In this document: one piece after another, positions 36,469 through 42,400 of the stretch
Layout of the letters: the number at the start of each line of letters is the position of its first letter
Numbering within the stretch: the stretch's first letter is position 1
Assembly (NCBI GenBank): GCA_009869945.1
Contig: WIXG01000172.1
Coordinates: 98,762 to 162,761 of the forward strand
Direction of reading: 5' to 3'
Length of the DNA stretch: 64,000 bases
From: Mesaphorura yosii
Taxonomy: Eukaryota > Arthropoda > Collembola > Poduromorpha > Tullbergiidae
Made by a program: the position numbers and the translations under genes
Notes under the pieces: model-generated
The model's input: the letters and a program-made list of their open reading frames with translations, nothing else
Told to the model about the DNA's origin: nothing
Databases searched by the model: none

Positions 36469-39458
36469 TTATGCTTGATGCTTCGCTTCGTCCGGATGTT
36501 GAGCAATGAAATGCCGTTGCATGGTGACTTCGTACAGAAATCTAACGGGGCAACCAGTTTTCGACGGGCATCCATACGGCTTCTCTGCGTTTCCTCTACG
36601 AAATCTTCCTGCAAGTACAGCTCCAACTGGCTTAGGTTTTTGCTCAATCTGTTTCGGCTTCGTGTTCGCCTGAGGAGGCAGAAGCGAACGCCAAGTACGC
36701 GAAGGAGTGGTGAGATAAGGCAAAGGTTCATCCGGGTGTCTTCTGCGAAAATGTTTCAACATGTACTTTCGTTTCTCGAAGGTCACCGTGCAACCAGTCG
36801 TTGACGGGCATACAACTCTGTTGAACTGCTGTTGAACATTTTCAATGGTTTGAGTTTTTAGGCCAGATGAATTTGTTGCAAGTTCAGACTCCTTCTTCTT
36901 AGGCAGAGCATCTTTTTCATTTTCCTGTCGCACTTTCAGCTTCAGCGAAGGTCTGTTGGCAGTCTTAATCTTAATCGAGCGGGATGGGTCTTCTTTATTG
37001 ACTGGAATAATTGCTGCACTAATTGTGGATGGAATTCCAGAAGCAAGCAAAGCTTCCTTCGAATGTTTGTCACGGAAATGCTTCATCATCGTGTTCTCAT
37101 ACAAGAATCTCACGGGGCAGCCAGTCGCAGATGGGCAGCCGTACGGCTTCTTGTCATTCTCAACACTATATCGTCCACGTTTTTGTGGCGACGGCGGCGT
37201 TTGCGTCCTAATCCCATTGGCAGGAGCGTTTTTCATTTCGGGTGTGATTTCTTTATTGCCGGAGTCCGGCGGCATAATCTCATTTGGATGTTTAAGGCTG
37301 AAGTGTTTCAGCATTGTGGACTTGTACAGAAAGCGCACTGTACAGCCCGTGCGTGAAGGACATCCGTAGGGTTTCTTGTCATTGTCCATCTTGCGCTGAT
37401 TGAAATCTGCTGAGTTATAAAGTCTAGGGCGGTCAGTGTTCATTCTCAGCCTCGAATGGTTCATATTAAAGTCGTTAGAATATCGTCTCAGATCACTAGA
37501 AGACCCGCCACTGTCATCAATTCTACATGCTCGGAATTTTGATCTTGGGTGCAATGATAAAGGCACTACAGACGTCAGATGGTGAAGTGGTCTTGCTCTC
37601 TTTTGTTTCCAATGCTTTCTCTTCTTATGTCTCCCTTTGCCGTTGAACCCATCTTCATCCGAAGAAGTAGAATACTCCGTAATGTCACTGCTGCACCGTG
37701 ACTCTGACTTCAATTTTGAATTGTGTGATGAAGATTTTACATGCTGGGACTTGGAGTGTGCACGCGCACCATTCATTCTTGCATCATTGAGGTTTTCTAA
37801 TCTCCGAACACAAGTTTTGTGAAGCCATTCAAGCCAGTAATCACGCCCTTCTCCGTTCTCGTCGTACTTTGGTTCGGGCATAACTTCCTTCTCGAGCTTC
37901 CCATGAGCCGTCAATGATTTACTTCGAAGCCAGGATTTGATTGCGTAGTGAGTGCGACTGTAGTTTTCTTTCTTCCCGTTCAGGCTTGATACTAAACCCA
38001 CGAATCTCGTGACGTCCGTGTCTTTGACGCCAAAGTGAGTCAAAAACTTGGTGATAAAACCACACGAGGGACCGTGGAGCTCATTCGGTTGGGTTAGCAG
38101 GAACACCAATATTTGGTTCACGTGTTGCTTAATGCCCGGCATCATTGAATACTTTCGGATTGTCACCATGCGCGATTCGAGGTCATACTCCAAATCTTCT
38201 ATGTGACCGATCATGAGCTGAACTGGATGAACCCCTATCTCGGTGTTTGGCGACTGCGACCCATTCTCATTGTTTCTAACATGGTTCGTTTGGAACAAGG
38301 CAAGCTCCTTCCCAACAGCTTCACTTGGTGGAGTTGTTTCTTTCTCGAGTGTTTCTTCCAGCTCTTGTTTCGTTCCGTGCTTAGGCTAAAACGTCAACAT
38401 GGCCAGGCTATTATTAAGCCTCCTGTGTAAGATATTTCATGTTTTCAATAAAGTATTAAGAACCTACCTGATCATCAATTGGAATAGAGAAATTGAAGTC
38501 ATTTCCATGAAGTCGAACTCCCAAAAACAGAAACAACTGACGAATAGCACTTAAATCCGGATGATTCAATATGCTGGGATAATCATATGCGATGCTAAAG
38601 ACGGTTTTCCAGACCGTTACGGTCTGGCATGAGGGTAAAAATTGACCGTTGGGCAGTTTTTGCTCACATAAGGCTTGTATGCGGTGCTTCAAGTCTACAA
38701 TTACATCTGTGGAAACGAAAAGATATGGTCATTGAAACTTTCAATTCTTTTATCACCTACAGGTACATGATTTTCTTCCCACCATCATTGTCATCTAGTT
38801 CCGGATTCATTTCGGAATCTCCATCAGGTACTTCCTGTCTTTCGATTAAATCTGCACCAACAGGACCGAGACCATTGGAGTTTTCACCACAGTCCATCGG
38901 CACATGGATGTCAGTATCGGCTGGACATAGTTGGACAGATTACTTCATTTTCAGATTACAGATTATCGACTACTTTAAAAAAATCGAAGATTACAGATTG
39001 CAGATTACTTTTAAAATGGTAAGATTACAGATTACTTTTAAAAAAATTGAGATTACAGATTTAAGATTACTTTAAGGGTACAGATTACAAGATTTCAGAT
39101 TACTTTTTAAAAAGGGGAAACCCGTTGACCTATAGGGTTTGGTAGGGGGTTGAGGGCGGATTCTGACGTATTTTCAAACAAATGAGGTGTGAATTACTGC
39201 TGAGTTTGAATTTGTCACAAAAAACGCTTTGTTTCATGTTTGCACTGTTTAGGTGAGACACACTGATTTTTGTGCTGAGGCTACAGATTACAGATTATTT
39301 TGCAGTTTTCTCAGGTTGAGATTACAGATTGCAGATTGAAATGGTGACAGGTTACACCTTGCAATTGTAATCTGATTACTTTTAAGATTACAAATAATCT
39401 AAAATCAAAGTAATCTGCCCACCTATGCAGCTGAACCTTCTTCAGCATCGATTTCCAT
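36469..39458 (-). CDS. Uncharacterised protein with four C-x5-C-x12-H-x4-H zinc fingers
   Basis: Predicted minus-strand exons: 39458-39437, 38920-38783, 38706-38468 and 38385-36469, phase-consistent, about 771 residues. The start ATG at 39458 has an in-frame TGA upstream. The N-terminal half includes a possible globular region (GQFLPSCQTVTVWKTVFSIA, LSAIRQLFLFLGVRLHGNDF) and EGRDYWLEWLHKTCVRRLEN, followed by a Ser/Lys-rich linker. Four similar units lie near 37285-37380, 37061-37155, 36737-36813 and 36490-36585. Each reads CPSxTGCxVRFLYxxTMxKHF then HP; unit three is the most diverged (CTVTFEKRKYMLKHF). The spacing fits TFIIIA-type fingers, but the sequence is unlike standard C2H2 fingers and the usual TGEKPY linkers are absent. 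A nuclear nucleic-acid-binding role is inferred. No known family was recognised. The first intron coincides with a transposon insertion. The join at 38783 uses a weaker GTGGGA donor. Confidence 0.78.
38926..39427. mobile_element. hAT-like miniature transposon (non-autonomous) forming an intron
   Basis: A 502-bp element with no coding capacity. Its ends are imperfect inverted repeats: the left begins CATAGTTGGACAGATTACTT and the right, reverse-complemented, begins CATAGGTGGGCAGATTACTT; 27 of the first 33 bases match. The TAGGTGGGCA core resembles hAT-superfamily ends. The flanks are similar 8-mers, CGGCTGGA (38918-38925) and CAGCTGAA (39428-39435), 6 of 8 identical, fitting a diverged 8-bp target duplication as hAT elements make. 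The interior is built of imperfect AGATTACAGATTACTTTTAA units in both orientations. It interrupts codons of the four-finger gene on the minus strand. Confidence 0.7.
38945..39110. repeat. GATTACA-type imperfect tandem array inside the miniature element
   Basis: Repeated GATTACAGATTA and TTTTAAAA words alternate with a period of roughly 20-30 bp. A second, smaller group in mixed orientation lies at about 39285-39420. The array belongs to the interior of the mobile element rather than being a simple microsatellite. Confidence 0.6.
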
Positions 39459-42400
39459 TTTCAATTTGAAAGGACCTCTTTGAAACTTTGCGATGCGTCA
39501 AAACCAAGTTCTTTCCTGAAAAAGAGCAGGGTTAAATCATATCCGAGCGTATTTACTGAAATTACCTTTTTACGTGAGTTACGTACCTCCAATAACTCTT
39601 ATTAGCTGAGTTTTCTGGAAAAGACAAAACTCTCTCAGAAATTGCAGCAATTGCAAAGACCTACAAAACAAACCTCTCCTCGACGTGTGTTGTAGCTAGC
39701 GTTGTGCTCTCAGCGTGGTGAAGATAAGTTTAATCACAGTTAAGAAATAGAACCACTTAATAGTCGACATTTTATTAACAGATTGATTTGTAAAACAGTA
39801 GAGAAAATGAAACACTGTATTGCATTTTCATTTCCTGCAAGCAACAACGAAAAGAAATGCAACGCAGCACAACACACTTTAACTCAAACTCCCGCAAACT
39901 TTCATTTTGTGTTGATTCGATTCAAGGTCTTTTCGCGTACAGAAACGTACGCAAGGAAGCGCAAGAGGACTCTTTCCTCTTCGTCATCTTTGTTGTAGTT
40001 TCAACTTTATCAGTGAATCTGAAATCTGAACTGCATCTGCAGCTTACTTTCTTTGTCAGCAAGACTGGCGTGATGACAGGCGCAATTTGAAGAGTATTCC
40101 CCACGTTCATTATGAATTTTAGAAGGAAGTAATGAGATTGAGAAGAACGACGTTAATTTGGAGGATTCTCTCGTTCTAGCACAAAATTAGGCCAATCATA
40201 TCAATCCATTTAAGGTGTCTGCATGGATTGTGACTCATCCATTGAAATCGGCCAGTTTGCATGACTGAAATAATTGCTTCTAAAGATTGTTACTTTGTTC
40301 CTGATCTAAAGTCATGCGTATTTTTAAATAGCCTTTTGAATCATCAATCTCCGGTGCTAACCTCCAAGCCACGCGCGTCTAGCCGAAGTCATAAACGACA
40401 TGTACGTGACGACATATGTTTACATTTATTGCATTGCATTTTATTAACTTTAAAAAGAAATTAGTGTCCTGTAATGCATTAAAATCTGGAAACGGGAACC
40501 CACACACACGCACGGAATGCGAGCGTGACAGTGAAGCCAAACAATAAGCCATTTGTCAATTCACAGGAGGATAAAGTACGTTAAAATGCTACTGTCACGA
40601 TCACACACAGTGTGAACAAGAAGCAACAACGACAGTGATATTTGATGAATCTATTATCACAAACACGATTCACAATTCACACATGTGCATGAATGTTACA
40701 ATCATAAACAACAGCATTTGAGTTATTTATTTGTTGATTGCTGGACAGTTCAGAGCAGAATTAATCTGAAATATCTGGTTTGAGGTGGGTCTGGGTTGCT
40801 GGGATTTCTGATCGCAGATCCCGAATGAAAGGAAAATAACCGTGAGTGCCGTGAAAACAAACACCAGTCTCGATCGCACTAGGCTCATTAGCGTCAAGAC
40901 GTCTGTCAAGTACACAATCGATTTCATAATCCGAAGGGTGTGTGCAGCTTTTCCTAATCTGCATCCAAGATAGCTCTGAACTTTGAACGAAGGCTGTTTC
41001 TGCGTCTGTTTCCTGTAACCATGCTCCAACTGACAGCTGTGAACAAATTCAGCATGCAAATAGGCACATAACAATCAAATGTAGCAATACATTTTATACA
41101 TTCAGTAAATGACGACATTAGTTCGTATTGTATTCAAGCCAAGCCACGCGCCACAGAATTTACGCACTTGGCTGGATTTTTTTCATTTTTTAGGTCAGAA
41201 TCCCGAGTATGTAGAATTTAAAGTTTTCAAGACGTCAAGTTCCAGATAATCGAGTGGAAGATCCCGAATAAATTGAGTTTGTAAACTCGAAGTTCAAATA
41301 CTGAAGTTTCGAGAAGCGACAGCGAGAATTCCATTATCGTTCTTTCTACCGCACCTGGGCCATGAGCGAACAACAGCTAACCGGATTTTGTTGGGTTTCC
41401 AGGAGCGATAAGCTTGGAAAAGTGGTTACGGCAGGCCAGTCCGCGGTTGCAGGCTGCTCAATACATTTTAAAGCTTTGATGCTGACTCCCGGCTGCTCGG
41501 TTGTTGTTTGTTCTTTCTGAAGCGCGGCTATCATCTATCAAGTTGTTGTTGATGTTTGTGTTTGCGGCTTTAAGACGAAGCCTGCTTTCGGGCCGTGGAA
41601 TTTGGACCTGAACTTTGAATATTTACAGTAACGTAATAAACGTAAGAAGTTTCATGCCCGCCTCGTGTAACGCTCGTCTACGGGAGCAACGAGCAATAAT
41701 TGCAGTGCTGCAAAAACAGAAGCACCAGCGGACGAAGCTAATTTTACTAGATTCTATCTCTAGAATATATCTGTCGTGTCGGCAGCCAACTCGTGTGTCG
41801 TGAATGGACACATGTGTCGATTCCCGCTGGTAACTTTCCAATTTTTTTCGCGAAATGACTGAAATGGCAGCTAATTGACGGAGATTTATGTTCTAATGCA
41901 GCCAGACGCAGAGATAAAAACATAAAAAATCTACAAAGTGCACGAGCCGGGCTAGCCTGCCAATGTAAATAATTCCCAGCATAATTACGGCTGCCATTAT
42001 GAGGGCAATCATTAGACATTTACATTAGACACATGCTGACATTCCCCATTCCATGCCATTCCATATCGAGTGTATCGCAGTCACAGTCTTATATCAGCTG
42101 GGCCCGTCTGGATTGCAAAAACTCGATGAAACATGGCGTAAAGCGGAGGAAGGGAAAGCAAAGCAAACATGCTTGCATTTGCAAAATGTGCAGAACAGAA
42201 ACTGCACGGAGCCCGGGAGCCCGTAAAAGTAAAACCCGCAACCTTGAGCTCATGTTTCATCAGTTCAATGTCAATGCCACAGCTTGACACGGCTGGGCTC
42301 TTCTGAAGGCCCTAATGATGGATGTTGAAAGAATTGCACAGGAAGCGAGGAGCCAAGCACAATCGATAACACTTCACTTAAACCCATCTTTAAAGCCTAT

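What the first reader, a model, noticed from the sequence alone, without database searches (positions are those of the whole stretch)
38918..39436. A miniature hAT-like transposon appears to have become an intron in a coding exon
On the minus strand the ORF reads ATG...GAA GAA GGT TCA GCT, is broken by the 502-bp element, and resumes in the same frame as GAT ACT GAC ATC after it. The element has 33-bp inverted ends (27 matches) and 8-bp flanks that agree at 6 of 8 positions. Splice sites sit in or next to the duplicated target: the donor G|GTTCAG starts at the edge of one copy, and the acceptor TCCAG| lies inside the other. Splicing there keeps frame and drops two codons relative to the inferred pre-insertion gene. 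This is how introner-like elements create introns. Without splicing, the element brings an in-frame TAG at once.
Basis: partly seen in the sequence, partly recalled or inferred. Interest (0 to 1): 0.87.

Follow-up and report, generated by a model that had tools for sequence, protein, structure and literature searches.

The report
Jumping-gene insert near a gene's start
A small, old jumping gene landed ten codons into what looks like the first coding piece of a gene, and the cell may cut it out of the message as a new intron; the insertion is real, but the cutting is not shown and the proposed cut site is weak.

Summary
The element is real. On the minus strand a 502-bp insert (38926-39427) has 33-nt inverted ends (27/33 matching) and flanking octamers agreeing at 6/8. 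Two relatives in the same 93-Mb assembly have such ends with 7/8 and 8/8 duplications; a third is truncated. It is an old, low-copy hAT-like MITE: four insertions found, 79-85% identical to the window copy over their main pieces. Removing it restores one open frame.

The intron reading is only partly supported. The proposed donor AAG|GTTCAG ranks with ordinary GTs (66th percentile), while the element's end offers TAG|GTGGGC (97.5th), which leaves an in-frame TAG. A frame-keeping GT-AG pair turned up in 30% of same-orientation simulated insertions, though only 1.5% matched both observed scores. In favour, the predicted hairpin of the ends covers the rival donor more than the proposed one. Of three relatives, one lies between exons of a REEP5-like gene and two lie in no recognised gene. 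No RNA, orthologue or empty allele was available. If spliced, it repeats what maize Ds is reported to do: a new member of a known kind.

The parts
38926..39427 (-). hAT-like MITE, 502 bp, CATAGGTGGGC...CCAACTATG on the minus strand
   Evidence: Inverted repeat; relatives
39395..39427 (-). Inverted end, 5' side in the gene's direction
38926..38958 (+). Inverted end, 3' side in the gene's direction
39428..39435 (-). Target octamer TTCAGCTG
38918..38925 (-). Target octamer TCCAGCCG, 6/8 to the other copy
38921..39436 (-). Candidate intron of 516 nt, GTTCAG...TCCAG, frame-keeping (inferred)
39417..39422 (-). Rival donor GTGGGC inside the element end; leaves TAG 39423-39425 in the upstream exon
39437..39515 (-). 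Putative exon with ATG at 39458-39456, up to the candidate donor
   Evidence: Strong 3' splice site before 39515; frame
38783..38920 (-). Rest of the interrupted exon; next in-frame ATG at 38897-38895
38707..38782 (-). Next, ordinary intron of the host gene (ATG|GTGGGA...CCACAG)
36469..38385 (-). Long downstream coding exon with repeated GCPS..GC zinc-finger-like units
   Evidence: start at 38385 read by eye from the splice site

Best explanation
An old, low-copy hAT-like MITE inserted with an 8-bp target duplication into the first coding exon of a single-copy gene, ten codons after the ATG. The gene most likely survived because the element is removed from the pre-mRNA. One target copy gives the 3' splice site (TCCAG), and the exon edge beside the other copy gives a weak 5' splice site (AAG|GTTCAG). 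The inverted ends fold the intron into a hairpin that covers the stronger but damaging donor TAG|GTGGGC. Shown: element, ends, duplications, relatives, frames. Inferred: transcription through it, splicing, choice of sites, any role of the hairpin.
For: Ends, duplications and relatives. The empty site is one open frame and splicing 39436-38921 keeps it. The upstream exon begins at a strong 3' splice site, 99.7th percentile, and must end somewhere. The ATG at 39458 reads AAAATGG. Only 105 of 7152 same-orientation simulated insertions have a frame-keeping pair that matches both observed scores. The hairpin folds better than all 100 shuffles, z -4.35. With flanks about 29.6-29.8 pairs form between the ends; summed over nine positions 3.7-4.0 are unpaired at the proposed donor and 1.3 at the rival donor (three contexts, no shuffle control). 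The element is old and the downstream coding exon is open.
Against: Donor score -3.5 is ordinary for any GT and the acceptor is modest, 91.8th percentile; the scoring tables are recalled, not trained on this species. The 11 candidate short introns all have GTA or GTG donors, partly by construction (donor score at least 0 required). By chance 2145 of 7152 same-orientation insertions have a frame-keeping pair and 1102 one of equal or better summed score. In the fold the G of the rival GT is itself unpaired, three bases of the proposed donor are almost fully paired, and the acceptor AG is mostly paired. Only ten codons lie upstream. No RNA, no orthologue.
Confidence: 0.35

Rival explanations
1. 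The element is spliced with its own donor TAG|GTGGGC. The first exon then ends in an 11-codon upstream reading frame and the protein starts at the downstream ATG (38897-38895), 17 codons shorter.
For: This donor scores 2.53, above the gene's own next donor GTGGGA at 1.99. A downstream in-frame ATG exists.
Against: The upstream ATG has a good context and would capture most ribosomes (established knowledge of scanning); an out-of-frame ATG precedes the downstream start (sequence); the donor lies in the stem of the predicted hairpin.
Confidence: 0.22
2. The element is not spliced at all: it lies in the 5' leader, transcription or translation starts downstream of it, and the upstream ATG is not used, or the exon holding it is skipped by splicing from the strong donor at 39586.
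For: Downstream ATG in frame; donor at 39586 scores 4.62, 99.3rd percentile; only ten codons lie upstream, too few to prove coding.
Against: Frame runs on across the empty site (one chance in three or so); the upstream exon has a strong 3' splice site.
Confidence: 0.3
3. A damaged or segregating allele: the insertion harms the gene and intact alleles exist.
For: No RNA or population data; one assembly only.
Against: Each flank is found once, no empty copy; ends and octamers have drifted and the downstream exon is open, which fits an old insertion.
Confidence: 0.1

Closest known systems
Maize Dissociation (Ds, hAT) insertion that made an intron: Giroux et al. 1994 (seen only as a citation in PMC3443670 and PMC2586383; content recalled)
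   Same: Small non-autonomous hAT-type element with 8-bp duplication in an exon, taken out by the spliceosome
   Different: Splicing is inferred here; unrelated element and organism
Introners (PMC9860276; passages and section 5 seen)
   Same: DNA-transposon ends and duplications; some families take one or both splice sites from the duplication or neighbouring exon
   Different: Introners are groups of similar introns; here four insertions were found, one of them a possible new intron
Transposon insertion as an intron-gain route (PMC3443670, passages and section 7 seen)
   Same: Latent sites beside the insert may let it be spliced out nearly precisely
   Different: The textbook form duplicates AGGT so that the code is unchanged; here two codons would be lost
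Daphnia intron gains flanked by short direct repeats (Li et al. 2009; not held; seen only as described in PMC3443670)
   Same: Putative new introns flanked by short repeats
   Different: Explained there by break repair; here a recognisable transposon family. That this genome is a cladoceran is my guess and was not tested

Membership tests
hAT-like MITE | 8-bp target duplication | tested here: met
   6/8 in the window, 7/8 at C235, 8/8 at C26; C255 lacks one end
hAT-like MITE | Inverted ends of hAT type (general motif recalled) | tested here: met
   CATAGKTGGGC-like ends: six (0-2 mismatches), a seventh, shorter one at C26
hAT-like MITE | Autonomous hAT element with the same ends | tested here: not met
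   39 hAT dimerisation domains; 30 of these loci scanned, at most about 1.5 kb each side. Seven of the 30 hold a loose match to the end; the one pair in the right orientation (L052) has flanks agreeing at 2/8. A missing partner is common for old MITEs, so hAT-like rests on ends and duplication
Introner family | Many similar introns in one genome | tested here: not met
   Four insertions; counts are lower bounds by the tool's own warning
Introner family | Splicing at or near the element edges | not testable with these tools
   No RNA data held
Transposon-derived spliceosomal intron | Spliced reads, or orthologue without the intron | not testable with these tools
   No relative of the host protein besides the gene itself
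Transposon-derived spliceosomal intron | GT-AG boundaries that keep the frame | tested here: inconclusive
   Present but donor weak and such pairs frequent by chance

The most novel reading that the evidence does not exclude
An animal hAT-type MITE became an intron in one step without splice sites of its own: both come from the duplicated target and its edge, and the RNA hairpin of its inverted ends makes a poor donor work by covering a better one inside the element. Any such MITE could then found an intron where the target holds a GT and a YAG in suitable phase.
Probability: 0.15. Interest if true: 0.6.

Novelty: new member of a known kind. Interest (0 to 1): 0.36.

Why it matters
Single, datable cases of a named transposon turning into an intron in an animal are useful for asking where introns come from, and whether the hairpin of inverted ends helps a new intron survive before good splice sites evolve. 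One RT-PCR would decide this case.

Tried and rejected
An introner-style family was looked for and not found: end pattern with up to 2 mismatches gave 9 matches, 6 of them ends of the four insertions and 3 (C5, C103, C110) without the rest of the element, about what chance gives by my hand estimate, though the reversed control pattern gave 0; core pattern gave the three known copies and one 3-mismatch place, C420, in unrelated sequence; longer end pattern gave only the four insertions. An autonomous partner was not found. A paralogue, an empty copy or an orthologue of the host gene was not found. Pfam gave the host protein one match below cut-off. A species-own donor model from strong acceptors showed no donor enrichment and was dropped as uninformative; scores therefore use recalled tables. 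One search took a wrong ATG for the observed pairs; its 32.5% and 0.92% figures pool both orientations and were redone. In the other orientation one search gives 2508 of 7152 any, 31 both, 100 summed. The 18S search to learn the lineage failed twice. The literature searches were made; two of them returned nothing.

Full report
Observation. The insert at 38926-39427 is a 502-bp element with 33-nt inverted ends, 27/33 matching, and flanking octamers equal at 6/8. It is rich in GTAATCT/AGATTAC units. In the assembly that holds the window (93,006,257 bases, 1127 contigs) it has three relatives: C235:107302-107757, 456 bp, octamers 7/8; C26:15297-15643, 347 bp, octamers 8/8; and C255, which has one end only. 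Identity to the window copy is 81%, 85% and 79% over the main pieces, plus a 40-base piece of C26 at 93%. This is a small, old family of hAT-like non-autonomous elements. No hAT gene with these ends was found, so hAT-like rests on the ends and on the 8-bp duplication.

Host gene. On the minus strand a 5' exon ends at 39587 with a strong donor, followed by a strong acceptor before 39515. The exon from 39515 holds ATG 39458, in the context AAAATGG, with a TGA in frame upstream. Joined without the element, the frame runs open to 38783, where an ordinary intron follows (38707-38782); a further one lies at 38386-38467 (boundaries checked). The long exon after it encodes repeated GCPS..GC units; Pfam gave one match below cut-off. 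The gene is single-copy here, and each flank of the insert occurs once.

Splice sites. Donor AAG|GTTCAG scores -3.5, 66th percentile of 7312 GTs; TAG|GTGGGC in the element end scores 2.53, 97.5th; the acceptor TCCAG|CC scores 1.68, 91.8th of 7283 AGs (recalled tables). Of the donor-acceptor pairs listed (3 donors, 4 acceptors near the junctions) only 39436 with 38920 gives an open frame into the gene (MEIDAEEADTDIHVP...); the other 11 stop after 11 to 17 residues.

Chance. The element was placed at each of 7152 positions in 11 open frames of the window that I took as coding. In the observed orientation 2145 (30%) have a frame-keeping GT-AG pair within about 12 nt, 1102 (15%) one with equal or better summed score, 105 (1.5%) one matching both scores; in the other orientation 2508, 100 and 31. 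So the mere existence of such a pair says little; the pair of scores says somewhat more, with thresholds set after the fact.

RNA fold. The element alone folds better than 100 of 100 shuffles (z -4.35), as expected of inverted ends. In three longer contexts about 29.6-29.8 pairs form between the ends. The nine donor positions have 3.7-4.0 unpaired at 39436 and 1.3 at 39422, but the G of the rival GT is unpaired and the acceptor AG is mostly paired. No shuffle control was run for this.

Other copies. C255 lies between a MASQFQ... exon and an exon matching TB2_DP1_HVA22 (E 5e-20; the match covers residues 73-126 of my joined protein, the first exon is assigned by recall). ORFs beside C26 and C235 gave no Pfam match (five tested). 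None is shown to be a new intron.

Known kinds. A review lists transposon insertion as a route of intron gain, with Zea among the cases and a Ds paper by Giroux et al. in its references (PMC3443670, passages and section 7). The introner survey reports families whose splice sites come from the duplication or neighbouring exon (PMC9860276, passages) and defines introners as groups of similar introns (section 5). This case would work like these, but membership among introners is not met.

Verdict. Observation confirmed; interpretation plausible but unproven; a new member of a known kind if spliced.

Noticed in passing
G000:C255:57319-57574 (L020 4320-4575): Truncated relative of the element between two exons of a REEP5-like gene, an ordinary intronic insertion; an eEF2-like C-terminal exon lies nearby (L020 6189-6758).
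   Followed up: partly
window 38950-39113 and 39275-39400: Many AGATTAC/GTAATCT units inside the element, in both orientations, like the subterminal repeats to which hAT transposases bind (recalled).
   Followed up: no
G000:C26:15297-15643: Relative with a perfect and palindromic 8-bp duplication ATTATAAT and an internally deleted right side.
   Followed up: partly
window 36469-38298 (-): Host gene encodes several GCPS(x)TGC...H zinc-finger-like repeats and has no Pfam family above cut-off.
   Followed up: partly
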